Assembly (NCBI GenBank): GCA_016098155.1
Contig: JAAAJB010000058.1
Coordinates: 27,011-91,010, forward strand
DNA length: 64,000 nucleotides
Direction of reading: 5' to 3'
DNA from: Actinomortierella ambigua
Taxonomy: Eukaryota > Mortierellomycota > Mortierellomycetes > Mortierellales > Mortierellaceae
Below are positions 39,094 to 57,598 of the stretch, piece by piece. Numbering within the stretch: the stretch's first letter is position 1; the number at the start of each line of letters is the position of its first letter. A program made the translations under genes and the position numbers. Below the pieces are notes generated by a model. That model ran no database searches and had not been told where the DNA came from. It saw nothing but the letters and a program-made list of their open reading frames with translations.

Positions 39094-39825
39094 ATGAAGC
39101 TCTTCGCCTCTACCCTCCTGGCATCCTGTGTGCCTTCTGCCTGCCTTGCTGTTGTTCACAGCACTTGGGCTTTCGACAAAATCCCACCAGCTGGATTGCG
39201 CGACATCACCTTCGCCTTCAATGTAGCCAATGCGCCCCATAGAGTGGGGTTCTACTTTGCCCAGCAATTTAACTTTCAGAATATCTCGAAAGTGGGCTAC
39301 ACTGGTCTCCAGCCTCAAGTAGACGTCAACGGGAATAGCGTCATCCGTGGTGTGTTCTCCTCGTTCCAGAATGGCACTACCACGAACCACCCCAATTGCC
39401 GCCCTGGAGCCGATGGTGGACCAGGTGTGAGCTGTGGGTTCATCTTTCCAGCAAATTACAATCACAAATTCAACATGACAGTCCAGAACATCGGCAACAC
39501 GACCTGGCGAGGCACAGCAGTCGATACCGTGACCAATAATGCTACTGAGATTGGCGTGTGGACCTTGCCACCAACTTCTGGTGGCATCTTGGATTCGCAG
39601 TTGGGATTTGTCGAGTATTTCCCATGGAATAACGGCAAACCTCATAATTGCTCAACTCTACCGTTCACTGAGGTTACGATGTTCAACCCGACCTCCAAAA
39701 CGACTGGTGCGAGTGGAGGCAAGATCACATCGGTGTATGAGCAGCCCAACCTATGTGAACATCTTGTCAACTTCTCGGACACGTTGGTGCCTGGAGGCCA
39801 CGATATCAAAGTCGGATTTTTGTAG
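39094..39825 (+). CDS. Array gene 1: secreted ~240-residue protein (family S)
   Basis: Intronless, 243 residues. Signal peptide MKLFASTLLASCVPSACLAV, then a mature domain rich in short strands: WAF..P..GLRDITFAFNVA, GFYFAQQFNFQN, GYTGLQPQ, VFSSFQNGTTTNHPNC, GADGGPGVSCGFIFPANYNH, TTWRGTAVDTVT, EIGVWTLPP, GFVEYF, EVTMFNPTSK. Four cysteines (HPNC, GVSC, NCST, NLC) are conserved through the array, suggesting two disulfides. Several N-glycosylation sites are present (NGT, NMT, NTT, NAT, NCS, NFS). The order 'GYTGLQ - VFSSFQ - W.G...D - WTEYF/FVEYF.WN' recalls DUF3472-type beta-sandwich proteins of bacteria and fungi. That is from memory and unverified, and no function is known to me. It is the first of seven same-strand relatives. 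Confidence 0.85.
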   Translation: MKLFASTLLASCVPSACLAVVHSTWAFDKIPPAGLRDITFAFNVANAPHRVGFYFAQQFNFQNISKVGYTGLQPQVDVNGNSVIRGVFSSFQNGTTTNHPNCRPGADGGPGVSCGFIFPANYNHKFNMTVQNIGNTTWRGTAVDTVTNNATEIGVWTLPPTSGGILDSQLGFVEYFPWNNGKPHNCSTLPFTEVTMFNPTSKTTGASGGKITSVYEQPNLCEHLVNFSDTLVPGGHDIKVGFL

Positions 39826-40139
39826 TGATCCAAGAGCCCTCGAAATGTTTATGATTTTTATTAACCAACAGAAATCTACATACATCTTAATCTGTTTTGG
39901 AGCAAGTAAATCGCGCCTTGGGCTTCTATTGGGGCTGCCTCCCGTATGATCTACCCCAAATAGACATAGACTAATCCCGGAATATCATAACAACTTCGAG
40001 CAGTAAAGAAGATGAAAACGACAATAGTCTGAGAAAAAACACTGCTCTACACACTGCTCTACACCTGCCATGTAGATGTGTTAGCAGCGACCACATTTAT
40101 ATGTGTTGGATTACACCGCAAATTCTGCAGCCTGAAGAT

Positions 40140-41434
40140 TACTAGACGTGCAGTGACCTATTGAATCCATCATGGATATCGGATGGCGCAATAGCTTCGG
40201 AGCAAATTATAAATCCTTGCAACGATTGTGACAGCACACGATGTTAGAACTATCGAAGTGCTAGGTCCAGTATTGTCAAACCTCGAGTATAATTCTTCTC
40301 CAGATCTGAATCCTTTAAGGCTTTCTGAGTTTCCTTCTTCGCGGCTCGAAGTTTGTTAGTACAGGTACTACCCTGACGTCTCGGAGTCAAATCTACGACC
40401 TACGGCAATCTTCCATTTTCCAACAACAGGGGTATTAGCGAAGGCTATATCATCTGCTACTCTGAATGATGCTATATTTATGACAGATCCGAGCGTGTGA
40501 ACATTTCGGTAGCCTCTCATAGTTGACATGCAGTTATCATCAACAAGTGTTTTAGTCCTCAGCTAGGGAAGCAAGAACGCGATGACATGCCTCGAGCCAT
40601 TTTCCTATGTAGTCAGCAAATGATCCTCTAACGGCCATCATTAAAAGTCTACGGCCGGCGCATTTGACCAGCCGTGGTGGGACATGGCGCATTCTGTAGG
40701 TTCGTCGCCAAAGCGTTTTCTAGACACTCCTGAAACTCTTGCGTGATCATGATGCCGTTTCTGCTTAACTTTGCGAATCCGGATGAAGAGGTGCAAGTAT
40801 TGGGAATAATCATTGACACGTTTGCTACTGCGTATTCACATTCAAGTGGTGGGCCTAACTGTTGTCGGTTGTATGCCTATCTTATGGCCTGGTGCCTCAG
40901 TCCAGCAGTCAATCTTTCATGCTCTGTTTATCTCAAGCTTCGACAAATCGAGACAATGGAGTGGGTACCACGAGGCCATTCTTGATCCATTTTTACTCGA
41001 GTGGCATAATACGTACTGAACAGTTCATTGTCCAAGGTGCGTCTATGGTTAGATTTGTCGTGGTTTCGCAACTCAATTTGCATTCTTCTGGAGCGTTATA
41101 AGGTAGTGTATTAGAGTGCGGTAATAAGAGGGAGACTTCTGGAATTCTAGAATCGGTCATGCTAGTGGTAGGCTACTGTTACTTCTCGAGCTTTTTCAGT
41201 TGTTTCGACCTATTAGGAAGCATGCAAGTATCGCTCGGTTCTTGCAGCTTCCGATCAACCAAAGGAAGCCGACGCCATGGCTACAGGTATCAAGTCCTAA
41301 TAGGGGGTTATATTTTCATAAATAGCCGGCACAGCTTTCGTTCGTCCCAGCTCACTAAAAATCGTCCATCCTCCACTCCCTCACTTTACATCTCACACTA
41401 GTGGTACAAACACCAGTCGTACATCAAGACAAAA
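40140..41434 (+). repeat. Tandem-unit upstream repeat (before array gene 2)
   Basis: Direct repeat of 42380-43691 with point changes and small indels. Together with the following gene it forms a unit of about 2.3 kb (ATG to ATG 2341 then 2257 bp). Confidence 0.8.
41318..41325 (+). promoter_or_regulatory. TATA-like box of array gene 2
   Basis: ATAAATAG, 117 bp before the ATG, followed by 'ccggcacagctttcgttc', shared with gene 3. Confidence 0.5.
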
Positions 41435-42163
41435 ATGAAGCTCTTCGCCCCTACACTCCTTGCAGCCTGTGTGCCTTCCGCCTGCCTTGCTGTTGTTTAC
41501 AACGAATGGGCTTTTGTCGTTCCTCCAACTGGATTGAGCGATATCAGCTTCCCCTTCAATGTAGCCAATGCACCCCATAGAAGGGGATTCTACTTTGCCC
41601 AGCAGTTTAACTTTCAGAATATCTCGAGTGTGTGCTACACTGGTCTCCAGCCTCAAGTAGACGACAACGGGAAGAGCGTCATCCGTGGCGTGTTCTCCTC
41701 GTTCCAGGATGGCACTACCACGAGTCACCCCAACTGCAGCCCTGGAGCCGATGGTGGACCAGGTGTGAGTTGCGGACTCATCTTTCCAGCAGACTACAGT
41801 CACACATTCAACATGGTGGTCGAGAACACCGGCGGCACGACCTGGCGAGGTTCGGCGGTCGACACTGTGACCAATGTCGCTACTGAGATTGGCGTATGGA
41901 CACTGCCATCAGAAGCTGGTGGTATCTTGGGCTCGCAGGGGGGGTTTATCGAGTATTTCCTATGGAATGACGGTAGATCTCATGATTGCTCAACCCTACC
42001 GTTCACCGAAGTCACAATTTTCAACCCGACCTCCAAAACGACTGGTGCGAGTGGAGGCACTATCACGTCGGTCTATGAGCAGCCCGGTGACTGTGTAACA
42101 ATGGTCAACTTCTCGGACACGTTGGTACCTGGAGGCCACGACATCAAGGTCGGATTTTCGTAG
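41435..42163 (+). CDS. Array gene 2: secreted family S protein
   Basis: Intronless, 242 residues, signal peptide MKLFAPTLLAACVPSACLAV. The whole mature domain aligns with gene 1: FPFNVANAPHRRGFYFAQQF, VFSSFQDGTTTSHPNC, PGADGGPGVSCGLIFPADYS, GTTWRGSAVDTVTN, WTLPSEAGGILG, FIEYFLWND, FNPTSKTTGASGG. It has one extra cysteine (SVCYTGLQ) beside the four conserved ones, an odd count that could allow dimerisation. It is closest to genes 1 and 3, and its surrounding spacer is also duplicated, so these three are the youngest copies. Function unknown. Confidence 0.85.
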   Translation: MKLFAPTLLAACVPSACLAVVYNEWAFVVPPTGLSDISFPFNVANAPHRRGFYFAQQFNFQNISSVCYTGLQPQVDDNGKSVIRGVFSSFQDGTTTSHPNCSPGADGGPGVSCGLIFPADYSHTFNMVVENTGGTTWRGSAVDTVTNVATEIGVWTLPSEAGGILGSQGGFIEYFLWNDGRSHDCSTLPFTEVTIFNPTSKTTGASGGTITSVYEQPGDCVTMVNFSDTLVPGGHDIKVGFS

Positions 42164-42379
42164 TAATTCAAAAAGACCTCAACATGTTTATGACCGTTTT
42201 AACAGCAATAACAAAAAAAATGAGATGGTCCAAATAAATACACTGCACTACGCCTGTCATGCGTGCGTGTGTGCAAAGACAGCTGATGACTGAAGACATG
42301 CACACTTTTAGCGAGTGTCACCAGCACTGTGTCAAGTTGCAACTACATCCATATGCGTTGGATTAAAGCCATTATAGTC

Positions 42380-43691
42380 TCACACCCTACAGCCTGAAGA
42401 TTACTATATGAGCGGCTTCCTATTAAACCCATCGTGGCTATCCAATGGTGCAATGGCCTCGGATTAAATTATCAACCCTCGCGACGAATGTGACAGCACA
42501 CGATAATAGAGATATTTACCTCTAGGATCTAGGATTGTCGAACCTCAAGGATAATTCTTCTCCACACTTCTATCCTATAAGATTCCCAGAGCTCCCTTCT
42601 TTGTGGCTCGAGATTCGATAGTAGCTCCAGTACCACTCTGTCGTCCTGGAGCCAAATCTACGACTCACTGATAGGAGCATCAGCGAATGCTCTAACGTCA
42701 GGTACTCTGAATAGTGCCATATTTCTAACAGACATGAGCGTGTGAACATTTCGGTAGCCTCTCATAGTTGACATGCAGTTATCATCAAAAAGTGTTTTAG
42801 TCCTCAGCTAGGGAAGCAAGAACGCGATGACATGTCTCGAGCCATCTTCTAATGTAGCAAGCCAATGATCCTCTAACAGCCATCATTAAAAGTCTATGGC
42901 CAGCCCATTTGACCAGCCGTGGTGGGGCATGGCGCATTCTGTAGGTTCGTCGCCAAAAAGCGTTTTCTAGACACTCCTGAAACCCTTGCATGATCATGAT
43001 GCCGTTTCTGCTTAACTTTGCGAATCCGGATGAAGAGGTGCGAGTATTGGGAATAATCATTGACACATTTGCTACTGCGTATTCACATTCAAGTGGTGGG
43101 CCTAACTGTTGTCGGTTGCATGCCTATCCTATAGCCTGGTGCCTCAGTCCAGCAGTCAATCTTTCATGCTCTGTTTATCTCAAGCTTTGAGAAATCGAGG
43201 CGTCGGTGTGAGTACCATGAAGCCTTTCTTGGCCCATTTTTACCCGACTGACATAATACGTACTGAACAGTTCATTGTCCAAGGTGACTCTATGATTAGA
43301 TGTGTCACGGTTTCGCAACGACAAATCTCTCATCTAACTACTCAATTTGCATTCCTCTGGAGGGCTATGTGATAGTTTATTCGATTGAGGTAACAAGAGA
43401 GAGACTACTGGAATTCCAGAATCGGCTATGCTAGTAGTAGGTTACTGTTACTTCTCGAGCTTTTCAGGTTGCTTCGACCTGTTAGGAAGCATGCAAGTAT
43501 CACGCAGTTCCTTCGGCTTCCGAGCAACCGAAAGGAAGGCAACGCCTTAACTATAGGTAAGGATTTTTCTTCCATAAAAAGCCGGCACAGCTTTCGTTCA
43601 TTTCAGCTCACTCAAAAATCGTCCATCCTCCACTCCCTCATTTTACATCTCACACTAGTGGTCCCAAACGCCAGTCCTACATCAAGACAAA
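42380..43691 (+). repeat. Tandem-unit upstream repeat (before array gene 3)
   Basis: Direct repeat of 40140-41434, ending at the ATG of gene 3. Boundaries estimated by eye. Confidence 0.8.
43574..43581 (+). promoter_or_regulatory. TATA-like box of array gene 3
   Basis: ATAAAAAG, 118 bp before the ATG, with the same flanking 'ccggcacagctttcgttc'. Confidence 0.45.
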
Positions 43692-44417
43692 ATGAAGCTC
43701 TTCGCCTCTACATTTCTCGCATCGTGTGTGCCTTCCGCCTGCCTTGCTGTTGTTGTTAACACCGAATGGGGTTTTTTTGTCGTTCCCCCAACTGGATTGC
43801 GTGATATCACCTTCCCCTTTAATGTAGCCAATGCGCCCCATAGAGTGGGGTTCTACTTTGCCCAGCAATTTAATTTTCAGAATATTCCGAATGTGGGCTA
43901 CACTGGCCTCCAGCCTCAATTAGACGTCAACGGGAATAGCGTCATCCGTGGTGTGTTCTCCTCGTTCCAGAATGGCACTACCTCGAGCCACCCCAATTGC
44001 AGCCCTGGAGCCGATTATGGACCAGGTGTGAGCTGTGGATTCATCTTTCCAGCAGACTACAATCACACAATCAACATGGTGGTTGAAAACATCGGCAACA
44101 CGACCTGGCGAAGTACGGCAGTCGACACTGTGACCAATGCCGCTACTGAGATTGGCACATGGACACTGCCATCAGAAGCTGGTGGCATCTTAGATTGGCA
44201 GTTGGGATTTGTCGAGTATTTCCTTGGTCTACCTGATGGTTGCTCAACCCTACCCTTCACCGAAGTCACGATGTTCAACCCGACCTCCAGAACGCCTGGT
44301 GCGATTGGAGGCTTAATCTCGACGGTCTATGAGAAGCCCGGCACCTGTGCAGGAAAGGACAACTACTCGAACTCGGTGGTGCCTGGAGGCCGCGACATCA
44401 AGGTCGGATTTTTGTAA
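43692..44417 (+). CDS. Array gene 3: secreted family S protein
   Basis: Intronless, 241 residues, signal peptide MKLFASTFLASCVPSACLAV. The mature domain aligns throughout with genes 1 and 2 (FPFNVANAPHRVGFYFAQQF, GYTGLQPQ, VFSSFQNGTTSSHPNC, GVSCGFIFPADYNH, TTWRSTAVDTVTN, FVEYFLG). It keeps the four conserved cysteines. The segment between FVEYF and the NCST-type cysteine is shorter (LPDGCS), which accounts for the smaller size. The C-terminal fifth (RTPGAIGGLISTVYEKPGTC) differs most from gene 2. A 26-base poly(A) run follows the stop at about 44457-44482, where gene 2 has a much shorter one. Confidence 0.85.
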   Translation: MKLFASTFLASCVPSACLAVVVNTEWGFFVVPPTGLRDITFPFNVANAPHRVGFYFAQQFNFQNIPNVGYTGLQPQLDVNGNSVIRGVFSSFQNGTTSSHPNCSPGADYGPGVSCGFIFPADYNHTINMVVENIGNTTWRSTAVDTVTNAATEIGTWTLPSEAGGILDWQLGFVEYFLGLPDGCSTLPFTEVTMFNPTSRTPGAIGGLISTVYEKPGTCAGKDNYSNSVVPGGRDIKVGFL

Positions 44418-45129
44418 CAATTCAAAAAGACCTCAACATGTTTATGACCGGTGTCAAAAAAAAAAAAAAAAAAAAAAAAAAAGAGAGATGGTCCAAATAA
44501 ATACACTGCGCTATACCTGCCATGCATACGTGCATAGACAGCTGATGACTGAAGACATGCACACGTTTAGCGAGCGTGATGGGCACTGTGTCAAGTTGCG
44601 ACCATATCCATATGCGTTGGATTATAGCCATTATAGTCTTGCACCCTGCAACCTGAAGATCCTGCAACCTGAAGATTACTATATGAGCGGTTTCCTATTT
44701 GAACCCATCGTGATTATCCAACGGTGCAATAGCCCTCGGAGCAAATTATCAACCCTCGTGCCGAATGTGACAGCTCAGGACACCAGAGATATCGACGTGT
44801 TGGGTCCGGGATGTCAAACCTCGAGGATAATCCCTTCTATACTAGTTTAAATTAAGGTTCTCTGAGATGTCCTCTTCGCCGGCGAGATTCGATAGGAGCT
44901 CCAGATTATCCTCTGCCGTCCTGATGTCAAATCAACGACTCGCTACAACCTTCCAACGATAGGGGCAGTAGCAAAGGCTTTATAGTCAACTACATTGAAC
45001 GATGTCAAACTTATGACAGATCTGAGCGTGGGATTTTCTCAGTATTTTAGAGAATTCGCCCGGCGGTACAGTCTGCCGGGTTAGTTTTTCTTCTTCTTGA
45101 AAAATGTGTACGAAATTCCGCTCTACGCA

Positions 45130-45440
45130 AGCACAGACGGATATCCTGACACTACGGTGAGCATCACAGACATGACCTTGTTAGTTGGAACAGCATTGGC
45201 AATCATTGTCATGGCTTCCTTGTGAGCGTTTCGCTGTTTTTCATTGAGGGTTGCAACACCGTCTTGGGATTGTCTGTTGGCCGGCACACGATCTTCAGCA
45301 GAGATTTCATGGTAATCCTAAATCCATAAAGGATGTCTTTTGGGACTGGGATATTGAAACCGCGAAATCTTCAGCAAGTGACATACCCATGTTGTTGATG
45401 TCTGGTAGGGCACGATTGGCGCGCAAATTGCGATCCCATG
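45130..45440 (-). pseudogene. Unidentified coding relic, minus strand
   Basis: Two open stretches on the minus strand read as protein-like sequence. One, from about 45440 to 45312, contains WDRNLRANRALPDINNMGMS and AEDFAVSISQSQKTSF. The other, in a different frame from about 45315 to 45135, contains HEISAEDRVPANRQSQDG and LNEKQRNAHKEAMTMIANA, then a stop. The frame change and lack of a start suggest a decayed gene or transposon piece. LNEKQRNAHKEAM faintly recalls the helicase N-motif of Pif1/Helitron proteins, but nothing after it supports that. Confidence 0.3.
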
Positions 45441-45786
45441 TCTGGTGTGTTCCTGTGTGATATGTTGTACATACACTATGCACTCAATGGAACTCTCAAC
45501 GAGGTCGTCTTTAATTTACCCCCGCAATTGGCGCGGGTCTCTGGGAGAGTTGTGGGCCATGATAAAGGAAATGGGCCGCCAGAGCAGGCGCGGACGCTTG
45601 TAGAAATTGGCCTTCCTCTATAGTCAGAACCAATAGTTTATCGCCTTGAGCTATACCTCTTGTTTCGAGGACTTCTTGCCATGAATGGTACTACACCGTG
45701 TACCATGGCGGGGTCTTGCCAGCTCCTTGCTCCTCAGGCGTGGCGGAGCAATACTCGCAGTGCGTTGAGCTCTTTTGTTTCTGGTA

Positions 45787-46086
45787 TTAACATTGAATAC
45801 GCGGCTGACATTTCTTTTGCAGCTCCTCAAGTGGCTGCCTCGCCAGACGTAATGAAAGGGCATTTCTGGCCATGCGTTTTTTTTCTGGCACCTCGTCTGT
45901 TTGATTCAAGGTAAACCAGACTTCAAGTTTAGTGCTCCGCCTGGCCACATCATAAATTGCTTCGTCCAGTGGTTGGCCTGTCCGAAAGTGAACAAGATGT
46001 AGGTCTTTGAAGTGCACAGTAGGCAGCAAAGCTTGGTGAACGACCATGAGCCGTGAAGTGGGTAATTTCGCCATAGACTCTCGCAT
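45787..46086 (-). pseudogene. Unidentified coding fragment, minus strand
   Basis: A 99-codon minus-strand frame with balanced composition (LHLVHFRTGQPLDEAIYDVA, RRSTKLEVWFTLNQTDEVPE, NALSLRLARQPLEELQKKC). It resembles a piece of a globular protein more than a chance frame. I do not recognise the family and see no companion exons, so I treat it as a fragment. It lies in the insert that lengthens the unit between array genes 3 and 4. Confidence 0.3.
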
Positions 46087-47415
46087 CCGGATATGTACCT
46101 AACATCTGGAAAGGCTTTGATCTCGTTGTCGCTTTTCCAAACCACAGACATGGGAAACACTCGTGCGACTCTTTATAGAGGTTATCCCTAGCGGCCCCTT
46201 CCAAGACACGTGCACAGAGGTGCGCGCCCACGCACAGCCACAGACCCTCCAATGGCGTGACGAGGGTAGTATGTCAAAAATAACACAGATTTTCGCTGAA
46301 GGAGGAGGCGCGACAAGTAAGTTGGATGTGTAGAATAATCGAATATGCAAACGATGGTCAGTTTTGACCAATCGCCACCCTAGAGGTGGGACGAGTCGCT
46401 GGGTGCTAGCCCGTGGTTTCTCAGGAGGCCGCCAATAGAGGCGCCAAACTGTGCGGGTTTTATGCCACGGAGGAGCATTCCTATCGTACAGGCCAGATGG
46501 CCTGTACGCGTGACATAATACGTATATAGCCGCTAGTCCGGTCATCGACACGCAGGCACGTCTTTTCTTAGGTGGATTTGAGCAATCGTGGAGAAGCATG
46601 GTACGTTCGATGTTGTATCCATCAATGCATCTTCCAGACACTTCAAACGTAAGCAGCAGTACATTTCGTTACTTGATCATGATGAGGTTTCTGAATAGAC
46701 TTTAGAATCCGGAGAAAGAGGTGCAACCAACGTGATACATATCGTTGAATAGTTTGTACGCATCATTAAATAGTTGGCGGGCTTATTTGTTGCGGTGGTC
46801 TGATGGCGTAATGAGGTAGTCAGCCTTTCGTTCTCTCGTTAATTCAAGCTTGGAGGGATTGGACTGTTGGAAGTGCACCATGGTCCTGTTAGGCGTTTAG
46901 CTCACAGGTGGAGCCACGATTGGGATGGCCAGAATCTCACATCGAAATATTATTTTCGTGTTCACTGTGGCGGCGCGATGACGATTGGCTTACAACTGAG
47001 ATTTCAATAGTAAAGAAAATTGGTATGCACGGGAAGGATGCGATTTAGCACATTTTGGAAGTAGCTATCGGAGGGATACAGGGCGTGGGTATGTTTGTTG
47101 GCAGTAGAGGAGCAGGGTTAAGAGGCATGTAGGGTCTTGAGCCCAACGGAATACTAGGATATCCTGGGCTGTTGTCCTTTTAAAACTGAGTCCTGACCTC
47201 CTGTATGGATCATAAGTCATGTGAGAGAATCAGTAGCATCCCGTGAAACGTGCACTTTTTTACTCTTCCCCTCCCTCCCTCCTCCTCCTTTTTTTTTTTT
47301 TTTTTTTTTACATGGTTGTATGAAATCATTTTCTCCTTCTTTTACCCTCCAAACCACCCCGCAAAAAGCGACTTCGCGACATCAGGAATCAAGCCCTAAC
47401 GGACTGCTGACAATC

Positions 47416-47423
47416 ATAAATAG
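47416..47423 (+). promoter_or_regulatory. TATA-like box of array gene 4
   Basis: ATAAATAG, 114 bp before the ATG at 47530. Flanks differ from those of genes 1-3. Confidence 0.45.
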
Positions 47424-47529
47424 TTACCGTGTCGATTTCCATTCGCTTCACCTTACCGAACACTACCCACCCTTCACACCCTTACGTTTCACACCAACGA
47501 CGCCAAAACAAGCACTGCAGAAACAAAAA

Positions 47530-48243
47530 ATGAAGCTCCATGCCACTACCCTCTTCGCATTATGTGCACCCTCTGTCTGCCTCGCCGTCGTTAGCCTCTC
47601 CTGGGATTTCTTGGCCATCCCCACTACCGGATTGCTTGATATCACCTTCCCCTTCAACGTAGCCAATGCGCCCCATCAAACGGGATTCTACTTTGCCCAG
47701 CAGTTCAAGTTTATAAAAGTCGCAGAAGTTGGCACCATTGGTCTCAAGCCTCAAGAAGATGTCAACGGTACTAGCGTCATCCGTGGCGTGTTCTCCTCGT
47801 CCCAGAACGGCACTACTACGAACCACCCCAATTGCAGCCCTGGAGCCGATGGAGGAGCTGGCGTGAGTTGCGAGTTCACATTTCCAGCAACTTACAGCAA
47901 CACATTCAACATGGTAGTCGAGAACATCAACGGCACAACCTGGCGAGGCACGGCAGTTGATAGTGAGACCTCAAACACTACTGAGATTGGCGAGTGGACT
48001 CTGCCGTCAGAATCGGGAGGTATCTTGGGTTCACAGACTGGATTTATCGAGTACTATGCTCATAATTGCACGGTCCCACCCTTCACCGAAGTCACGTTTT
48101 TCAACCCGACCTCCGACACGCCCGGTGCGATGGGAGGTAGCATTGAAACGGTAGCTGAGCGGCCCTACGGATGCGAAAAGCAGGCCAATTTCACGGACAG
48201 GGGCGTGCCTGATGGCCACGACATTAGTATCGGAGTTTTGTGA
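47530..48243 (+). CDS. Array gene 4: secreted family S protein
   Basis: Intronless, 237 residues from ATG 47530, the start that gives a signal peptide (MKLHATTLFALCAPSVCLAV) equivalent to its relatives. The frame is open back to 47221, but that part is leader (poly-T derived Phe run) and is downstream of no TATA box. The mature domain has FPFNVANAPHQTGFYFAQQF, VFSSSQNGTTTNHPNC, GADGGAGVSCEFTFPATYSN, GTTWRGTAVDSETSN, WTLPSESGGILGS and FIEYYA. The WN segment after FIEYY is missing, making the loop short, and the four cysteines are kept. Only moderately similar to genes 1-3, so an older copy. Confidence 0.83.
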   Translation: MKLHATTLFALCAPSVCLAVVSLSWDFLAIPTTGLLDITFPFNVANAPHQTGFYFAQQFKFIKVAEVGTIGLKPQEDVNGTSVIRGVFSSSQNGTTTNHPNCSPGADGGAGVSCEFTFPATYSNTFNMVVENINGTTWRGTAVDSETSNTTEIGEWTLPSESGGILGSQTGFIEYYAHNCTVPPFTEVTFFNPTSDTPGAMGGSIETVAERPYGCEKQANFTDRGVPDGHDISIGVL

Positions 48244-49557
48244 TACGCCTCAAAAAGAAAAAAAAATCCCATGACAACTTTGCAGCGTCTGTTGATGGCT
48301 GAGTACATGCATGCCCATAATAATAATGGTGGCAATTCTGCCAATACATATATATGCGTTGGATTAAAGGCATTTCAGTCACGCTTAAAGACGCCAAGGC
48401 TTACAGCTGTCTATTGAACCCATCTTGGATGTCAATAACGTCATCGCCTAACTAACGAATGTGACAGTAAATGGTATTAGAATCATCGATATGTGAGGCC
48501 CAGAATTGTCAAATTTCGTGGACAATCCTTACCACACCTGCTTCTATTGGTGGTTGTCCATGTTCGCCTCTTCGCAGCTCGTGATTCGATAGCAGCCCCA
48601 GGTATTCCTCTGTCATCTCGGTGTCAACTGCCAAGTCATTGATTCATGACGATCTTCCAACGATAGTTTTAACGTCGGCTCTGGGCGAGCGGCTATTTTA
48701 ATAGCCTCCTATAGTTGTCGTGCACTTCCCGCCCAACGACCCTTCAGTCCTCGGCCATGTAGCAGGAATTTGAAGGTAGGGCTTGATGTTTCGCACCTCC
48801 TTCACAAGCAGTAGGCAATGGTTCTCTAGCGGCCATCAAGAAAGGTCTAGGGCAAACGCATTCGACCAGTCATGATGAGACATGGCGCTCTCTGTAGTTT
48901 CGTCACCAAAAGGATTTCCTGGTCACTCCCAAAGCCTGGGTATCATGTCCCCTTTCTTGGTCAGTTTTCGCCCGAATGACAGTATTACGTACTGAAAGAA
49001 AGTCATCAAAGGTGACTCTACGCCGAGATTTCGTAACGAAAAATCCCTCTTTTAACAACCCAACTTGCATTCTTCTGGAAGGCTATGAGGTAGTTTGTGA
49101 GGATGGGGTCAAAAAAGGAGACCACCGGAATTCTAGAATTAGCTAGGCTAGTAGGTTCATGTTGCTTCTCGAGCGCATTTTTTTTTCCTAGTGGTTCCGA
49201 CCTGTATCGAAGAATGCAAGTTCGCTTAGCTCTTGTAGCTTCCAATCGACCAAAGACAAGGGAAGCCTTGATTTTTACTAGGCAAAATCGAAGATTAAGA
49301 AGACCCAGACCTTTTGTCTGAATGTCAGGACCATCATAGTTGCAAACCCAGCCTTTTTTTCCTCCTTTGCTGGTGGTGAGCACTTTTGCAGGGCAGAGCT
49401 GGAATTTTATTTTTCTAAATTTTCGCGAATAAAAGAAGAAGCCATTATCTTAAACAGCCGCTTCTGCTTTCATCACGAAAACCGTCCATCATCTACACAC
49501 CCACTCCATATCTAAACACTAGAGACACCAAAGCCAAGCCGTATTTAAAACAACAAT
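48244..49557. other. Spacer of tandem unit 4/5
   Basis: Diverged version of the unit spacer ('tgcgttggattaaaggcatt' near 48355, cf. 42355; 'cgtactgaaagaaagtcatc' near 48989). No gene supported. Confidence 0.5.
49429..49435 (+). promoter_or_regulatory. TATA-like box of array gene 5
   Basis: ATAAAAG, about 129 bp before the ATG. Downstream flank shares 'aaaaccgtccatc' with genes 1-3. Confidence 0.4.
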
Positions 49558-50295
49558 ATGAGGCTCCTCGCCGTTACCCTCCTCGTCTGCACGCCTTCTG
49601 TCTGTTTTGGATTCTTTGCATCTATCAATAATTGGGGATTCTCCGAGTTTCCCGAGACTGGATTGAACGATATCACCTTCCCCTTCAATGTAGCCAATGC
49701 ACCTCATACAAGGGGAGTCTACTTTGCCCAGATGTTCGGCTTCCAGAATATCAAGGAGTCGGGTTACACTGGCCTCCAGCCTCAAGAAGACGACAACGGG
49801 AATAGCGTCATCCGTGGTGTATTCTCCTCGTTCCAGAATGGCACTACGACGAACCACCCCAATTGCAGCCCTGGAGCCGATGGTGGACCAGGTGTGAGCT
49901 GTGGGTTCATCTTTCCAGCAAATTACAATCACATATTCAACATGACAGTCCAGAACATTGGCAACACGACCTGGCGAGGCACAGCAGTCGATACCGTGAC
50001 CAAGAATGCTACTGAGATTGGCGTGTGGACTCTACCACCAGAATCTGGAGCCATCGTAAATGGGCAGTTGGGATTTTTCGAGTATTTCCTATGGAACGGC
50101 GGCGGCGAATCCCATAATTGCTCAACCCTACCCTTCAGCGAAGTCACGATGTTCAGCCCGACTTCAATGGCGAACGGCGCAGTTGGAGGCCACATCATAT
50201 CGGTGTATGAAGACTCCAGCGAATGCTCAACACACGTCAATATGTCGTACACGGCTGTGCCTGGTGGCTACAATATCAAAGCCGGATTTTTGTGA
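49558..50295 (+). CDS. Array gene 5: secreted family S protein with a gene-1-like core
   Basis: Intronless, 245 residues. Signal peptide MRLLAVTLLVCTPSVCFGFF differs from its neighbours, as does the first third (NNWGFSEFPETGLNDITF). From GYTGLQPQ to EIGVWTLPP the protein is almost identical to gene 1 (NGTTTNHPNC, GVSCGFIFPANYNH, FNMTVQNIGNTTWRGTAVDT), including FIFPANYNH where genes 2 and 3 have FPADY. After WTLPP it diverges again (ESGAIVNGQLGFFEYFLWNG, SPTSMANGAVGGH). The pattern suggests gene conversion with gene 1. Four cysteines and several N-glycosylation sites are kept. Confidence 0.85.
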   Translation: MRLLAVTLLVCTPSVCFGFFASINNWGFSEFPETGLNDITFPFNVANAPHTRGVYFAQMFGFQNIKESGYTGLQPQEDDNGNSVIRGVFSSFQNGTTTNHPNCSPGADGGPGVSCGFIFPANYNHIFNMTVQNIGNTTWRGTAVDTVTKNATEIGVWTLPPESGAIVNGQLGFFEYFLWNGGGESHNCSTLPFSEVTMFSPTSMANGAVGGHIISVYEDSSECSTHVNMSYTAVPGGYNIKAGFL

Positions 50296-51455
50296 TGCTC
50301 CAGAAAAAAAGAAACGAGTCGTTTCGTCATGACGAAGACTCTTTGTCCTGAAAAGAATATAAAATAAAGTAGTGATTGTACATTCGTATTTGGAAAATGT
50401 CGCCGCTCTCGTTCAGCAACCCACAGCTTAAAGATGACAAGATGTCCATTGATCCAATCGTCGAGGACACATAAGGCCATTCTCGATGTTCAATACATCG
50501 GAGGCATAGGCGTCTACAGGTTCTTAAACCTCGAGAAGAATCTACCGCACAAAAAAGTTGAAAACGCTATGTTCTGCTGGGAGCCCCCTCTTGTAAGATC
50601 TTAGCACCGTCTTATCCGTTTAAACGCAATGATTGTGTCTGTGCTCCTTAGGATGGGTGTGGGCGGTTTGCGCCTTCACTTTCATGCACCAATAGGGTGA
50701 TGAAATCCATACAGTTCATTGTAGCCTCGAAATTGACATCCGTCAGGCATCAGGGGGGTTTTTTCGCAGTCAATCTCTCGATCTCTTCCATTTGGTCGAG
50801 GTCCGATTCTGCGAGATGACACGTGTGGCGCGGCGGTTGCTTTTTTTCTTTTGCATGGCTGGGGATGCTGGTGAGGATGAAAAGGGAGACAGGCAGTACC
50901 ATTGAAAAATGTTTTTGGGTGAGCCATGTACGAACAGAGAATAAGGTTGATCCTGTGATATGATTGGCTGGCATTTTTGCTTTGCGGTATGCGACGGAGG
51001 GGGTTGGTCATGATTGCGTTGCTGCAGTTGCTGCCGTTGCTGTCGTAATTGCTTCTGTAAGCAGCGGTTAATATGGTTACGGCATATGCTTGCTGTCGTG
51101 GCGACAGCTGCAGTGGCCATTTGAGGTTGTTGTTGCTGTCGGTAGTTTTGTCGAGGGCAAGAGGAACCCAATGGAATATTAGGACAGTTTGGGGATGTGC
51201 GCTACTTCTCAAGTATCCATTCTTCCCAGTGCCTACTGAACTGTTAGGAAGAATGCAGGTGTAGCCTCCTTTTCCTCACAGCTCATGTAGTTAACCTAAA
51301 GAAAGGGAAACCCACAGCAAAGCAAACAGCTTGTTAAATATCCGACCCCATCCATTTCACTACACCGACACTTCTGCGATCCCACCTGCAGAACCTCGTT
51401 CGACGCTTCCTATCAGTGGCACCAAGACAACCACCTACAAAAAATAGAGAAGAAA
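50296..51455. other. Spacer before array gene 6
   Basis: No supported gene. Minus-strand frames between 50682 and 51212 are Gln/His/Asn-rich and overlap each other in two frames; I could not build a convincing gene from them. Confidence 0.4.
51334..51341 (+). promoter_or_regulatory. TATA-like box of array gene 6
   Basis: TTAAATAT, 122 bp before the ATG; a weak match, listed because of its position. Confidence 0.3.
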
Positions 51456-52187
51456 ATGAAACTCGTCACCGCCACTCTCCTCTTAGCATGCGCACCTTCA
51501 CTCTGCTTTGCTTATGCTTTAGCCCCATGGAAGTTCAAAACTGCGCCCACTAGCGGAATAGAGCACATCGTCTTCCCCATCAACATTAGCAACATGTCCC
51601 ACAAATGGGGATACAACGTTGCTCAACAGGTCCGCTTTAAGAACAGTGCCAATGTTGCATTCATTGGCCTTCAGCCTTATGCTGACGCCGGCGGACAGAG
51701 CGTCTTCCGCGCATCGCTCACTACTTTTCAGAACGGCACAACGTCGAATCACCACACGTGCCATCCTATGCGGAACTCCCCCGGTATAGAATGTTCCATC
51801 ATGATCAACGGGAACTACAACCACACATACGAGCTGAAGATCGAGAAGGCCTATGAAACAACCTGGCGAGGATTGGTAAAAGATTCGGTGAATGACGATC
51901 TGTACTTGATTGGCCTGTGGACACTGCCGCCGACAACCGGTAACATCACGAATGGAAACAATGGATACATAGACTACATGCCCTGGAGCGACGCCCAGAC
52001 GTCGCCTGATTGCTCAACTCTGCCCATTGCTGAGGTCACGATGTACGACCCGTTCTCGTATACGGAAGGTGTCTCTGGTGGCCGCATCGATCGTGTGCTT
52101 GAGTATGGCACCTGTGCGGGTGCGATGAACTTTAAGAACAAGACGGTCGACGGAGGCTACGACTTCACAATCGGGTTTTTACCTTGA
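51456..52187 (+). CDS. Array gene 6: divergent secreted family S protein
   Basis: Intronless, 243 residues, signal peptide MKLVTATLLLACAPSLCFAY. The framework aligns with the other copies: WKFKTAPTSGIEHIVFPINI, GYNVAQQVRFKN, FIGLQPYAD, TTFQNGTTSNHHTC, TTWRGLVKDSVND, IGLWTLPP, GYIDYMPW, DCSTLPIAEVTMYDP, GGRIDRVLEYGTC. The GADGGPGVSC block is replaced by MRNSPGIECS and VFSSFQ by ASLTTFQ. The four cysteines persist (HHTC, IECS, DCST, GTC). It is clearly homologous but strongly diverged, with the same length and signal peptide layout, which suggests it is maintained rather than decaying. Confidence 0.82.
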   Translation: MKLVTATLLLACAPSLCFAYALAPWKFKTAPTSGIEHIVFPINISNMSHKWGYNVAQQVRFKNSANVAFIGLQPYADAGGQSVFRASLTTFQNGTTSNHHTCHPMRNSPGIECSIMINGNYNHTYELKIEKAYETTWRGLVKDSVNDDLYLIGLWTLPPTTGNITNGNNGYIDYMPWSDAQTSPDCSTLPIAEVTMYDPFSYTEGVSGGRIDRVLEYGTCAGAMNFKNKTVDGGYDFTIGFLP

Positions 52188-53160
52188 TTATCTACGAAGC
52201 ATTGTTTTGGATCTCACTTCATCATGTACTGTCTTAAGAAGAGAACCAAGAGATATCAACTTAATGAACACAAAAACACCTTTTCCTTGACAGAAAATAT
52301 GGCTTTGGACATCCATCCATTGTACCCGTAGTGGCCACTGGTGACCAAGTGGTGCTCAAACCTTTACTCGCGCATGTGACTACAAATCTATGAAGAAATC
52401 CTCGGCTCTGCTAATAGGAGGGAAGGAAAGTCGGTGTTGGGAGCGTTGCGTTTACTTCAGTTCTTAACGTTATCATAGTTACTAAAGCAACGTGCAAAGT
52501 CCATTTGATTCCGATACACTACTGGATCCAAGGATACTGCGCTTGGCTGGCTCCCAGGATATCTTATAAAATACGACTCAGAATGTAGCCTCGAATCGTC
52601 TTGGCATTCAGGGATGTAGGGAATAATCCATTCCTGCTTCCTTCCATCCGAAGCGAGCCCTCGATCTCTCGTCAGGCCCCATGGTCTACCCTGTGGTTTA
52701 ACTGTTGTTGATTGATCGCATACCTGTCTGTTGATCCAAGTGACACAACAGTGAAGTGCCACCACAGCAACCGAAACTCTCTATTTCCAGCCTGGCTGGC
52801 AAAACGGAGGCAGTATTACCGTTCTTGCACCCCGTCCATCCTACATACTGACCTGACCTTTTCTCTTCAGTCTTGAAACATCCGCTGGCCCAGCCTGCCT
52901 TCCCCTCTATAACGCAGCCGGGAGATTGCTCACTCAAATTTATCTCCTTGCTTACCTCTCCAACAATCATACCACACATGCAGATTCTCTACACTCCCTC
53001 CGTGCCTCCAAGTTCCAATAGCACTAACAAACGACCTTATGATAAGGATATCATGGCTCATTCCGATACTTTAGCATGATCCTTGTAGTCGCAAAAAATC
53101 TGGCAACTTTGGACGTTTTGCGGTACTCCCTTTTGTCGGTGTGTAGAACTCCTCTTTAAC
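52188..53160. other. Spacer; left copy of the knottin-gene duplication
   Basis: From about 52517 the sequence is a near-identical direct repeat of 55151 onward. No gene supported before the broken knottin copy at 53161. Confidence 0.55.
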
Positions 53161-53380
53161 ATGAAGCCGTGACTTGGTCTATGCCTTGTCTTGCTGTTGT
53201 TGATGGCAGCTACTCAAGCTAAGCTCCCACATCCACCTCCTCGCGGCACACCTACATCCGTATCTACTGCGACACCTACAGTGGTGAGTGGAGCCAACAC
53301 CTAGTCCTTACGTTGCTCTTGGTGCGTTATGTTCCTGGAGCGGAGATCCCCCCTGAGCGCTGCTACCTCCACTGGCGTAC
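52517..53380 (+). repeat. Segmental duplication, left copy (broken knottin-pattern gene)
   Basis: Matches 55151-56000. The first 320 bp (from 'actggatcc.aagatactgcgc', to 'ggcagtattaccgttcttg') are close to identical; the following promoter and coding parts are more diverged. Confidence 0.85.
53161..53380 (+). pseudogene. Nonsense-broken sister of the two-domain knottin-pattern gene
   Basis: The ATG at 53161 lines up with the ATG at 55825, but codon 4 is TGA. Past it the same frame still reads a signal-peptide-like and Pro/Thr-rich stretch (LVLLLMAATQAKLPHPPPRG, cf. AKLPTRPP in the intact gene). The cysteine domain has decayed: only a sequence resembling GALCSWSGDPP (about 53328-53357) is left of GGLCSWWGGLPCC, with frameshifts and further stops. 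The upstream duplicated segment is better preserved than the coding region. Confidence 0.75.
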
Positions 53381-55824
53381 TTGACGTACTTTTGAAGAAT
53401 AGGGGGTAGCGTTAGCTATGACTTCCGGAACTATTTCATGCAGCCGAACCCTCGCCGCCCTGCTCTTCCCACTCTCCCTCTCTTTCAAAGGAGCTTCCGT
53501 ATTCTGCATCGCTATTGCAATTGAACTTCTTTTGGCGCATGCTCTACATCCTCTCCCCTTTCTCTTCCCACCTGTGGCATTTCTCGTTCCTCTAAGAGAC
53601 GGACTATCAAAAGGAGCGTCAGGTGTTGAGGTATGACCTTGAGAGGCTACGCTGCAGAGAGAACTACAATATCCACAATGTCGAGATATTTGCTCGTGAG
53701 GGGAGGATTGCAGCACTACGCATCACGTCCTTGTGTCAAGCTGTGTAAAAAAAAAAAAAAAAAAAAAAAAAGACTCGGCGCTGTGATTTTCAGTGGTGTT
53801 AGAGGTGCAGGAGGCTTTCTTGCCTGAGTATGACTATGAATGGCAGTGTTCGCTAACTATAGCATCTCATGGTAGTATGTAGATTGGCATATCCATAGGC
53901 ATCCAACGTGGGTCGATCGTCGCTTCCATGGCGGATTTTGATGCGTGGTTATGCAATGAGCCCTTGTTAGTTGGCATGTGTTTGTTGTATCACAGTTTTC
54001 AGATGAGTAAATAACGGGATAGCCATAGTAAAGATGCCATACAAAGATGCCATGCACTGAAGTCTTCCCTTTAGACCAAGTACTGGTCCTGTCACTGCCT
54101 TCATCCGAAACCTATGCGGAGAGCAATCATCGAGGAACATAGCGCTTTCGATGATTTCCATTGAATACATATTCTACATAGATACTTTCAGCCAGAGAAA
54201 ATGCAATAAATTGTTGGCTCGATTATGATACAAGTCCTGTTCAAGCCTCCAAAATAGATGCTTCGCACGCATCATTCACTCGAAATAGGCGGTTTTCAAT
54301 GGAATATACCCGACCGAACAAGCCACTCTCATTCGCAGTGCACTGGAAAGAAGGAAAGAGGCAGCGATCTGTTTTCGTCCAAATCCATCCTTCTACTGCT
54401 ACGGCTGTTTCCTTCTTCCGCCATCGGCCAAATGATGCGGATCTGAATAAAAAGCACATTGTCTTCAAGAATGCGGTACATGCAATTGTATTCGTTGGTA
54501 AAGATCTCATCCATTCTTCACTCTCGATCTATGAAGCCTAGACAAGCTCTTCTCCTTTAATGCTTTTATCGATAGCCATCGTACAAGGCCGCATGCCACC
54601 GTGTCTCCATATTGGGTCCAAATACTCGGGAGATGACTTGTTCCCCTGCTGCTGTGGTATCTGTGTCCAGGGCCCTGGCGAAACAGAACGGTATTGTCAC
54701 TACCGAAAGGAGGCGTCACTTCATTCTGATAAATAAATAGAACTCATAGGCTTTTGAAGTGGTAAACAGATAATGATCATTCACTCTTCTCCTTTGGTTG
54801 GCTCGTCACATGCGGTCGAGGCATCGTTGCGTGCAGGAAGGCTATGACGGAGGGGAGCACTCGATAGAAATAGCTATTTGAGTGGATGCAGATACGTATG
54901 TATTTAGGGCACATGTATGGATGCCCGTGAAAGCGAGTAAAGAAAAGGCTTGTTGTAGTATCCAAGATGTAACTCTACGACTATCGGTTGGACCTTGTCG
55001 TAACATTCAAGTGGACACATGAGCCAATAAAAGCCCACTGCGCAGCGCAGCGGAGGGAGAAAGAAGGGGTGCCGGTATCGTTCAAAAGACAAAACGGGCT
55101 AACGGCAGATGTTAGCAGCGCATCCTCAATTGATTCCAATACTGCCTTTGCTTCGACTACTGGATCCCAAGATACTGCGCTTGGCTGGCTCCCAGAATAT
55201 CTTATCTTTCAAAATACGACCCAGAATGTAGCCTCGAATCGTCTTGGCATTCAGGGATGTAGGGAATAATTCATTCCTATTTCCTTCCATCCGAAGCGAG
55301 CCCTCGATCTCTCGTCAGGCCCCATGGTCTACCCTGTGGTTTAACTGTTGTTGATTGATCGCATACCTGTCTGTTGATCCAAGTGATACAGCAGTGAAGC
55401 GCCACCACAGCAACCGAAACTCTCTATTTCCAGCCTGGCTGGCAAAAAGAAGGCAGTATTACCGTTCTTGTACCTACATACTGACTTGGCTTTTTTATCT
55501 TCAGCCTTTATTCATCCGCAGGCCCAGCCTGCCTTCTCATCTTTAATGCGGTCGAGCACCATTTTGAGGTTGCTTGGTATAAATTGTCTCTTTGTTTGCT
55601 TCTCCACCAATCCTACCACACATCCAGATTTTCTACACTCTTTTCGTGACCCCAAGTTCCAACAAGCACTCACTAACCCCCACCATCTGGTACGGGTGTC
55701 ACGATCAACGTCTGTACCTTGAGCATGAACCATCGTCCAAGTGCAAAGTAGCTAACTTCATTGGTCGCTATGTGTGTGTTACTCCCCTTTTGTCGGTGCT
55801 GATTTCCTAGAACTCTTCTTCACC
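53381..55824. other. Intergenic, then right copy of the duplication
   Basis: Poly(A) at about 53748-53771. Frames around 54241-54541 on both strands are unremarkable and unassigned. From 55151 the sequence is the right duplicated copy, leading into the knottin-pattern gene. Confidence 0.5.
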
Positions 55825-56000
55825 ATGAAGTTCCAATTTGGTCTCTCCCTTATCTTTCTGTCGTTGGTGGCATCTACGCCAGCCAAGCTCCCAACTCGAC
55901 CTCCACAATCGTCCACAGCTACATCTACGGCTAATCCTACAGAGAAGCCGACACCCACTTCCTGTATTGCTGATGGTGGTCTATGCTCCTGGTGGGGAGG
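55151..56000 (+). repeat. Segmental duplication, right copy (intact knottin-pattern gene)
   Basis: Direct repeat of 52517-53380, about 2.6 kb apart. It carries the promoter and 5' part of the intact gene. Confidence 0.85.
55578..55584 (+). promoter_or_regulatory. TATA box of the knottin-pattern gene
   Basis: TATAAAT, 247 bp before the ATG at 55825, a spacing like that of the Cys-rich gene at 23408. Confidence 0.45.
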
Positions 56001-56235
56001 TCTTCCCTGCTGTAACAACGGAGATTGCCACATGGGTGCTGATGACAAAAAACCGCGCTGCTACCCTCGTTGGAGTCCTTCCTCGACAACGCCTACAGCG
56101 AAGCCGACACCAACTTCCTGTATTGCTGATGGTGGTCTATGCTCCTGGTGGGGAGGTGTTCCCTGCTGTAACAACGGAGATTGCCACATGGGTGCCGATG
56201 ACAAAAAACCGCGCTGCTACCCTCGTTCTCCTTAG
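55825..56235 (+). CDS. Secreted protein with two tandem six-cysteine (knottin-pattern) domains
   Basis: Encodes 136 residues. The start at 55825 opens a signal peptide (MKFQFGLSLIFLSLVASTPA); an in-frame ATG at 55774 would put it inside. A Pro/Thr-rich spacer follows, then two almost identical domains. Each has the spacing C-x6-C-x7-CC-x4-C-x10-C (SCIADGGLCSWWGG, then PCCNNGDCHMGADDKKPRCY), the inhibitor cystine knot pattern. The domains are separated by WSPSSTTPTAKPTPT. The 52-codon unit is repeated at the DNA level (starting 55936 and 56092) with only a few changes, one giving Leu versus Val before PCC, so the internal duplication is recent. The fold is shared by many unrelated small secreted proteins (inhibitors, antimicrobial peptides, ion-channel ligands), so no specific activity can be claimed. 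Confidence 0.82.
   Translation: MKFQFGLSLIFLSLVASTPAKLPTRPPQSSTATSTANPTEKPTPTSCIADGGLCSWWGGLPCCNNGDCHMGADDKKPRCYPRWSPSSTTPTAKPTPTSCIADGGLCSWWGGVPCCNNGDCHMGADDKKPRCYPRSP
55936..56230 (+). repeat. 156-bp intragenic tandem duplication
   Basis: Two copies with a period of 156 bp (52 codons) encode the two six-cysteine domains. Differences are a few substitutions, and the second copy ends at the stop. Confidence 0.9.
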
Positions 56236-56875
56236 ACAAGAAATCGTAATTGCTCCATCTCGTTCAGTAGAAGCATTGGTTTCGTGCCAAATACGCAAAC
56301 TTCGCGAGGACGACCGGTCTTGACCATTGAGGCTCATCTCTTCCGCCTGAACTGGCACTTTATTCTACATATATGTATTTTCTTCTTGTTCTTATTTTTT
56401 TGAATTCATGAACTAGTAAGGCCAGGAGTTGTTCTCAGCACGGTAGAGAAACAAGGTGCAAATAAAAGTATGTAAGGTGAAGACTCGCCAAAGCCATACA
56501 GCCGGGTAGCATGTCATGGGAGCTTCTCACATGAGAGAAGTAACCACTACTGTACGATTCCCAAAGACGCTTGTACGCCATTCTTTGCTAGGGTAGTTTC
56601 GTATCCAGCAAAGTTACCCTGATTCTGAGTTGCTAGTGTTTTAGAGATCTGGGTGACATTCTCACAGCTCCTAACCAATCCATCCAAGCAAGAGAAAACC
56701 CTGCCCTCCCTCCCCCCTCATGCAGACACAACGACTCCACAGGGAGTTAAATAGTTGATACATCTACTTTATTAGCTCGACTTCCTTATCCCTACCCCAT
56801 TCATCCGTCCTCTGCAAAAAAAAACCTCACGCCAAGCCTCTGCAACTCGAGGACTTTATTAAAGGAGCAATAGAA
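56236..56875. other. Spacer before array gene 7
   Basis: No gene supported; the leader of array gene 7 is in the last 130 bp. Confidence 0.5.
56747..56754 (+). promoter_or_regulatory. TATA-like box of array gene 7
   Basis: TTAAATAG, 129 bp before the ATG; weak match, same relative position as in the other array genes. Confidence 0.35.
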
Positions 56876-57598
56876 ATGAAACTCTTCGCCGTTGCTCTAC
56901 TTGCAGCGTGCGTCCCGGCACTCTGTCATGCTGTCGTTGCAACCATGTGGGAGTTTGCGCAGTTTCCCGAAAACGGAACGAGGGACATCGCGTTCAAGTA
57001 TAACATCACCCAAACGCCGCAAACGAACGACTACGCATTTTTAAACTATGTCGGCTTTCACAACGTCCGAGAAGTGTCCGCTATCGTTATCATGCCACGG
57101 GAAAAATCCCGCGGGAGGGATGTTCTTCGCGCGGCGTTCATTACTACCTGCCCAGATGCCAGCACAACACACCCCCATTGTAATCAAGTGGTCCTCGAAG
57201 ATGCAGTTGTCACCAGTTGTGTGATCAACGTCCTGATCGACTATCGCCACATATTTTCATTAGTGGTCGAGAACATAGGAGGCACGGCTTGGAGAGGCAA
57301 GTTGGCCGACGCCGCGGGTGGTCGAGTCATCATCGGCGACATCAAGCTGCCGTCAGACTCTGGTTTAATCGTGAATGGAGGGTACTCATCCTTTCAACGC
57401 GTCCAAGATTTGTTGCATATATGCTCATTAATGCCCCTTACCACATTCCAGATATACAACCCAACCTCGGTAACCAGAGGAGCAACTGGAGGCCAAATAA
57501 CGATGATGTATGAGGATGAGGATTGTGTCCAACAGCAGCAGTTCAATGTCACGGCTCTGCCTCAAAGCTATAATATCACTCTCGGGTTTGATTATTAA
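56876..57598 (+). CDS. Array gene 7: most divergent secreted family S protein
   Basis: Intronless, 240 residues, signal peptide MKLFAVALLAACVPALCHAV. The skeleton remains: MWEFAQFPENGTRDIAFKYN, VGFHNVREV, HPHCNQ, VENIGGTAWRGKLADAAGG, GDIKLPSDSGLIVNGG, FQIYNPTSVTRGATGGQITM, YEDEDC. The GYTGLQPQ block has become SAIVIMPREK and VFSSFQNG has become AAFITTCPDA. Five cysteines are present: four at conserved positions and one extra (TTCP). Strand phrases, length and signal peptide are conserved despite low identity. AT-rich sequence follows the stop. It is the last array member, separated from gene 6 by the knottin-pattern duplication. Confidence 0.8.
   Translation: MKLFAVALLAACVPALCHAVVATMWEFAQFPENGTRDIAFKYNITQTPQTNDYAFLNYVGFHNVREVSAIVIMPREKSRGRDVLRAAFITTCPDASTTHPHCNQVVLEDAVVTSCVINVLIDYRHIFSLVVENIGGTAWRGKLADAAGGRVIIGDIKLPSDSGLIVNGGYSSFQRVQDLLHICSLMPLTTFQIYNPTSVTRGATGGQITMMYEDEDCVQQQQFNVTALPQSYNITLGFDY

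What the first reader, a model, noticed from the sequence alone, without database searches (positions are those of the whole stretch)
39094..57598. Seven-gene tandem array of one secreted protein family
Seven intronless, same-strand genes of 237-245 residues share a signal peptide layout, four cysteines, many N-glycosylation sites and a fixed order of strand motifs (WxF..P, FNVANAPH, YFAQQF, GYTGLQP, SSFQNGTT, WRGTAVD, WTLP, EY, NPTS). Other genes in the window mostly have introns. The array looks like a birth-and-death locus for an extracellular product. I only recall a DUF3472-type resemblance, so the function is open.
Basis: partly seen in the sequence, partly recalled or inferred. Interest (0 to 1): 0.78.

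Follow-up and report, generated by a model that had tools for sequence, protein, structure and literature searches.

The report
Fungal array of secreted glycopeptidase-like proteins
A soil fungus carries seven neighbouring copies of a gene for a small, probably secreted protein from the same family as a bacterial enzyme known to cut sugar-coated proteins; some copies have kept the probable cutting residue and others have lost it.

The parts
39094..39825 (+). gene 1, 243 aa; keeps Y69, Q73, D107, E174 (E174 codon 39613-39615)
   Evidence: (pLDDT 92.8)
41435..42163 (+). gene 2, 242 aa; keeps Y69, Q73, D107, E174
43692..44417 (+). gene 3, 241 aa; keeps Y69, Q73, D107, E174; a public record names a 196-aa version (DFQ27_007404, P0055)
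47530..48243 (+). gene 4, 237 aa; keeps D107 and E174, but Y69 is Thr and Q73 is Lys
49558..50295 (+). gene 5, 245 aa; keeps Y69, Q73, D107, E174 (Q58 is Met); 97.6% identical to DFQ26_003868 (P0003)
51456..52187 (+). gene 6, 243 aa; E174 is Asp, no Asp at 107, Y69 is Phe; 92.4% identical over 197 residues to DFQ26_003867 (P0060), which also has Asp at 174
56876..57598 (+). gene 7, 240 aa; Y69, Q73, D107 and E174 all changed (Ala, Met, Glu, Ser), cysteines and predicted fold kept: probable pseudoenzyme
   Evidence: (pLDDT 90.7)
40125..42666 (+). tandem unit (gene 2 plus flanking DNA), 82% identical to the next unit
42387..44941 (+). tandem unit (gene 3 plus flanking DNA), partner of 40125-42666
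39327..39563 (+). 237-base stretch of gene 1 that is 97.5% identical to gene 5 (73% elsewhere): probable gene conversion
   Evidence: 0 of 2000 codon permutations reach it
49794..50030 (+). the matching stretch in gene 5 (coordinates worked out by hand from the alignment offset)

Best explanation
The seven genes are a lineage-specific tandem expansion of a secreted, single-domain, four-cysteine subfamily of DUF3472 proteins. The predicted fold is a concanavalin-like beta-sandwich, shared with the mucinase HC7 and, more distantly, with glutamic peptidases (eqolisins, neprosin). Most likely mechanism (inferred): the protein is secreted, holds a glycosylated polypeptide in a cleft, and hydrolyses a peptide bond with Glu174 as general base (position of HC7 Glu200). 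The helper residue is not the second conserved Glu of the canonical family, which is missing here; Asp107 next to that place, or Gln73 as in eqolisins, is the candidate. Genes 1, 2, 3 and 5 keep all these residues, gene 4 keeps Glu174 and Asp107, gene 6 has Asp for Glu174, and gene 7 has lost the set and is probably a binding-only pseudoenzyme. Shown: family, predicted fold, residue conservation, duplication. Inferred: catalysis, substrate, secretion.
Against: No activity, substrate or expression data. The second Glu that is conserved in seven canonical rows is Gly, Tyr, Asn or Asp in the seven window genes, so the 'di-glutamate' set is incomplete. I could not read the HC7 paper, so which Glu pairs with Glu200 is my inference. 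No coordinates were available, so I could not measure whether D107 or Q73 faces E174, or see the cleft. Q73 is Lys or Arg in two bacterial relatives that keep E174. No glycan-binding module is attached to the window proteins. A profile comparison with two eqolisin-family proteins gave no significant match (probability about 3% at most). Proteins of this fold include lectins as well as enzymes. Gene 7 has a second fairly hydrophobic stretch (mean 1.54 over 19 residues).
Confidence: 0.5

Rival explanations
1. Secreted lectin-like proteins: the family in this clade lost catalysis and binds glycans, for example on its own or another organism's cell surface.
Confidence: 0.3
2. Glycoside hydrolase or polysaccharide lyase with the same sandwich fold, acting on the glycan and not on the peptide bond.
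Against: The only DUF3472 member with a stated activity in the passages I read, HC7, is a mucinase. The named glucanases score more than 7 Z units below HC7.
Confidence: 0.15
3. A decaying duplicated locus without a present role: copies drift after duplication.
For: Active-site positions changed in genes 4, 6 and 7; long branches for the gene 6 pair and gene 7; no expression data.
Against: All 7 frames are open with all 4 cysteines, dN/dS is below 1 for every array pair (0.37-0.66; saturated dS with genes 6 and 7), the upstream box is shared by 7 of 7, and genes 5 and 6 have 97.6% and 92.4% identical counterparts in another A. ambigua record.
Confidence: 0.05

Closest known systems
HC7 mucinase, Bacillus cereus K8 (PDB 8pmu, 8pn3, 8pn5)
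   Different: 17% identity; HC7 is longer (659-residue chain) and has a CBM5; its second conserved Glu (residue 131 by my count) is Gly108 in gene 1; window proteins have four cysteines around the domain and no module
BACCAC_02064, Bacteroides caccae (PDB 4qhw)
   Different: Two domains by its title; keeps the EGxG glutamate; function not stated beyond 'putative sugar hydrolase'
Eqolisin and neprosin glutamic peptidases
   Different: No significant sequence relation in my one test with two eqolisin-family proteins; residue equivalence not measured
Centipede venom DUF3472 proteins
   Same: Same Pfam domain, multi-copy, spread by horizontal transfer (PMC7864903, passages and section 10)
   Different: Many with an N-terminal DUF5077; traced there to bacterial donors; not compared here by sequence

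Membership tests
DUF3472 (PF11958) | Window proteins match the PF11958 HMM directly | tested here: not met
   0 of 7 at E<=1; own-genome scan with the family also found nothing, as in its 14 controls. I take this as a detection limit of the model, not a structural criterion
DUF3472 (PF11958) | Homology to PF11958 members | tested here: met
   17 of 60 A2 rows match, none a window gene; bacteria-only profile finds genes 1-6 at 3.3e-28 or better but not 7; canonical-only profile finds genes 1-5 at 1.4e-4 or better but not 6 or 7; GAD-type profile finds all seven
DUF3472 (PF11958) | Fold of the solved members 8pmu and 4qhw | tested here: met
HC7-type di-glutamate mucinase | Glutamate at the HC7 Glu200 position | tested here: met
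   Met for 5 of 7: genes 1-5 Glu, gene 6 Asp, gene 7 Ser
HC7-type di-glutamate mucinase | Second conserved glutamate (EGxG motif; its catalytic role is my inference) | tested here: not met
   Gly108 column holds G, G, Y, G, G, N, D in genes 1-7
HC7-type di-glutamate mucinase | Cleavage of O-glycosylated mucin | not testable with these tools
   needs purified protein
HC7-type di-glutamate mucinase | Carbohydrate-binding module | tested here: not met
   No Pfam domain at all in the seven at E<=1; the predicted domain fills the 237-245 residues
Eqolisin (G1) | Gln/Glu dyad in equivalent places | tested here: inconclusive

The most novel reading that the evidence does not exclude
The 'GADGG' clade of fungi and some bacteria is a separate catalytic version of the DUF3472 glycopeptidase: it has replaced the second glutamate by glycine and works with an Asp/Glu or Gln/Glu pair, and in Actinomortierella it has been multiplied into a locus that mixes enzymes with catalytically dead secreted partners.
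Probability: 0.3. Interest if true: 0.7.

Novelty: new variant of a known kind. Interest (0 to 1): 0.5.

Why it matters
It ties a large group of mostly 'hypothetical' fungal proteins (412 hits at E<=0.001, best 120 listed; Mortierellaceae, Fusarium, Metarhizium, Claviceps, Aspergillus, Penicillium and Marasmius among those named) to a family with a solved, characterised glycoprotein-cutting enzyme. It names the residue to mutate first, and shows natural variants with and without it side by side in one genome. If the clade is active without the second glutamate, it gives a new arrangement for glutamic-class peptidases.

Tried and rejected
DUF3472 by direct Pfam scan: no hit for the seven; kept as family only after indirect tests. 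NCBIfam: no hit for the seven, for P0071 or for L019. PDB sequence searches with the window profile, with A3, and with L021 or its DUF3472 part: no relevant hit to the domain; A4 succeeded. Viral contigs: 71 pattern matches, 0 relatives. The closest viral fold match is a Vesanto virus DUF3472 protein; not followed. Eqolisins (PF01828) in the own genome: none found (that scan rang in 1 of 14 controls), which does not show absence. Profile alignment to two eqolisin-family proteins: not significant. A recent transfer from an endofungal bacterium was considered: Mycetohabitans endofungorum has a relative, but only at 33% identity, and the fungi stand apart from the bacterial rows on a weakly supported branch (66), so direction is not settled. 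The tree used 84 rows: 10 genome copies, 6 bacterial rows and 68 of the 169 proteins held; unlabelled metagenome proteins and others were left out by my choice. Gene 7, L009 and the gene 6 pair sit on long branches, and the tool warns that the join of gene 7 with L009 may be false. Ascomycete rows fall among Mortierellaceae rows in places (5 changes, only 1 forced by starred branches), and a basidiomycete (Piloderma) groups with two Mortierellaceae rows at 99, so transfer between fungi is possible; I did not test it further. Gene conversion was tested on 10 pairs: g1/g5 (0 of 2000), g1/g3 (0 of 2000, score 102 against a shuffled maximum of 99) and g3/g5 (3 of 2000) stand out; g4/g5 (29), g2/g5 (130) and the other five do not. 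The seven canonical rows were picked by hand as having EGxG, so their agreement in that column is by choice; that no third column is Glu in six or more of them is not.
Full report
OBSERVATION. The seven ORFs are present as stated, on the + strand, each open from Met to stop, 237 to 245 residues. Identities to gene 1 are 80, 79, 67, 74, 43 and 36%. Four cysteines are common to all seven; two more sit in the signal-peptide region. N-x-S/T sites number 7, 3, 5, 7, 7, 6 and 4 for genes 1 to 7. No intron is needed in any of the seven coding frames. I did not check the introns of the other genes in the window systematically.

WHERE IT COMES FROM. The window is bases 27011-91010 of contig C533 of a 33.8-Mb genome in 846 contigs. 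Gene 5 is 97.6% identical to DFQ26_003868 and gene 6 92.4% (over 197 residues) to DFQ26_003867, of another A. ambigua record. The protein database is clustered at 90% identity and the lists are capped, so the lack of listed counterparts for genes 1-4 in that record does not show absence.

HOW MANY COPIES. Two searches of the whole genome, with gene 1 and with gene 7, find the same 10 places: the seven, two on C66 about 7 kb apart, and one on C293. The count is a lower bound by the tool's own note.

HOW THE ARRAY AROSE. The repeat includes intergenic DNA: 40125-42666 matches 42387-44941 over 2,613 columns at 82%, and genes 1, 2 and 3 match each other with over 100 bases of upstream DNA. dS between genes 2 and 3 is 0.21 and between the C66 pair 0.18. 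Gene 1 and gene 5 share a 237-base stretch at 97.5% identity against 73% elsewhere; 0 of 2000 codon permutations reached that score. Third codon positions in that stretch are 93-97% identical, so selection on the protein alone does not explain it well. I read this as gene conversion. In a tree of 84 rows, genes 1-5 and two proteins of the other A. ambigua record form a starred group (99), and the C66 pair groups elsewhere with Linnemannia and Mortierella relatives. Neighbouring locus-tag numbers of hits in Entomortierella, Podila, Mortierella alpina and Marasmius (EMPS_07277/07279, MVEG_08327/08328, BGZ68_003618/003619, PQX77_012927/012928) suggest that small tandem groups recur; this rests on the numbers alone.

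FAMILY. Pfam finds nothing in the seven at E<=1. Of 247 homologues found with the alignment of the seven (best 120 listed), several carry PF11958, which is DUF3472. In a scan of 60 aligned members, 56 of them database proteins (three of these are genes 1, 2 and 4) and 4 further window sequences, 17 match DUF3472 at E<=1, best 3.4e-9; none of the 17 is a window gene. Of 10 relatives scanned singly, 7 pass Pfam's cut-off and 3 fall just below it. A profile of 14 bacterial domains, with no fungal row, finds genes 1-6 at 7.7e-39 to 3.3e-28 but not gene 7; a profile of five close bacterial rows also finds gene 7 at 1e-10; a profile of seven canonical rows finds genes 1-5 at 4.2e-8 to 1.4e-4 but not 6 and 7. 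No decoy of 210 was reported (E-values for 24,736 sequences).

THE FUNCTIONAL LINK. A profile of 20 DUF3472-type domains matches 8pmu at 8.9e-17, whose deposited name is 'DUF3472 domain-containing protein'. [quoted passage not shown] The primary paper, Narimatsu et al. 2024, is not held, and I know it only as a citation. In the profile alignment, HC7 residue 200 (by count) stands under the column of E174, and the chain of the Glu200Ala mutant no longer matches Glu there.

ACTIVE-SITE POSITIONS. Numbering is that of gene 1. Over the 169 proteins then held from the three protein searches (best-scoring lists; bacterial hits and some of the genome's own proteins included), E174 is Glu in 165 and Asp in 3; Q73 is Gln in 166; Y69 is Tyr in 165; D107 is Asp in 162; the rest are other residues or gaps. 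In the window: genes 1, 2, 3 and 5 keep all four; gene 4 has Y69T and Q73K; gene 6 has Y69F, E174D and no Asp at 107; gene 7 has Y69A, Q73M, D107E and E174S. Outside, L006 and L007 keep all four and L009 keeps Q73, D107 and E174. Two bacterial relatives have Arg or Lys at Q73 and keep E174. Among seven canonical bacterial rows, chosen by hand because they carry EGxG, only two columns are Glu in six or more: that of E174 and that of Gly108. HC7 has Glu in the second too (residue 131 by my count). I infer that this is the other glutamate of the 'di-glutamate' pair. All seven window genes lack it; in genes 1-5, as in most of the clade, an Asp stands one place earlier. Between the two flanking cysteines the spacing is the same in a canonical row with cysteines (L037) and in the fungal rows, so the shift is not an alignment slip.

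RELATIVES IN BACTERIA. A scan of species genomes with A2 gave three loci: Mycetohabitans endofungorum, a Pantoea MAG, and Enterobacteriaceae RIT693 (33, 35 and 32% identity). Twelve of 398 genomes drawn from the phylum of the Pantoea genome, itself included, have PF11958. The same Pantoea assembly has a DUF3472 protein with two CBM5/12 modules. Two Streptomyces plasmid hits are annotated as RICIN-domain proteins. DUF3472 thus at times keeps company with glycan-binding modules. That fits, but does not prove, a glycoprotein or glycan target.

EXPRESSION AND SECRETION. An N-terminal hydrophobic segment is present in 10 of 10 copies; beyond residue 30 the highest 19-residue mean is 1.11 or less except in gene 7 (1.54). 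No signal-peptide predictor was available. A TAAA(T/A/C)A box lies at -107 to -128 in 7 of 7 genes, against 813 of 14,953 seventy-base stretches of nearby non-gene DNA; the motif was chosen after seeing the alignment. dN/dS is 0.37-0.66 for the 21 array pairs; the values with genes 6 and 7 rest on saturated dS. No transcript data were available.

PRINT. A search for 'DUF3472' finds four papers, three on centipede venom and one on Drosophila viruses (passages read in three; PMC4379518 seen only in the listing), and 'PF11958' one paper, on a nematode-killing bacterium (one passage). None of the passages read treats a fungal DUF3472 protein's function, although PMC7864903 includes fungi in its tree (section 10). 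This library lacks most subscription journals, so a wider literature may exist.

VERDICT. Membership and fold I hold at about 0.95; catalysis on glycoproteins at about 0.5.

Noticed in passing
55826-56236 (+), and 52518-53240: A secreted-looking six-cysteine protein built of two units whose DNA is 97% identical (55936-56071 and 56092-56227), with only marginal Pfam matches to Conotoxin and Toxin_9 (E 0.016). A stretch 80% identical to its upstream region and start lies at 52518-53240, where the frame looks broken by eye.
   Followed up: partly
3243-5130, 10555-12570, 13322-15264 (+): Three peptide-transporter-like genes in tandem, apparently with at least one intron each: PTR2 was found in the two long exons scanned (3673-5127, 13939-15261); the middle gene was recognised by eye. 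A second tandem family in the window.
   Followed up: partly
23294-23860 (+): A secreted-looking cysteine-rich ORF without a Pfam match at E<=0.001.
   Followed up: no
L018:4374-5606: Mycetohabitans endofungorum, by its name an endofungal bacterium, has a DUF3472 gene of the same GADGG type behind an N-terminal part with weak CdtA-like and ricin-like matches (E 0.017 and 0.036); a frame next to it (5722-6096) looks like a transposase part, a label from memory.
   Followed up: partly
L036:1363-2643 and L037:1357-2382: DUF3472-type genes on a Streptomyces plasmid (annotated RICIN) and on a Serratia plasmid beside traB.
   Followed up: no
genes 3 and 6 (43692-44417, 51456-52187): Public gene models for gene 3 (196 aa, P0055) and for the gene 6 counterpart in the other A. 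ambigua record (197 aa, P0060) lack the N-terminal hydrophobic segment that the DNA of this window encodes.
   Followed up: partly
tree: Piloderma croceum (a basidiomycete, P0157) groups with two Mortierellaceae proteins (P0117, P0100) at 99, a possible transfer between fungi.
   Followed up: no
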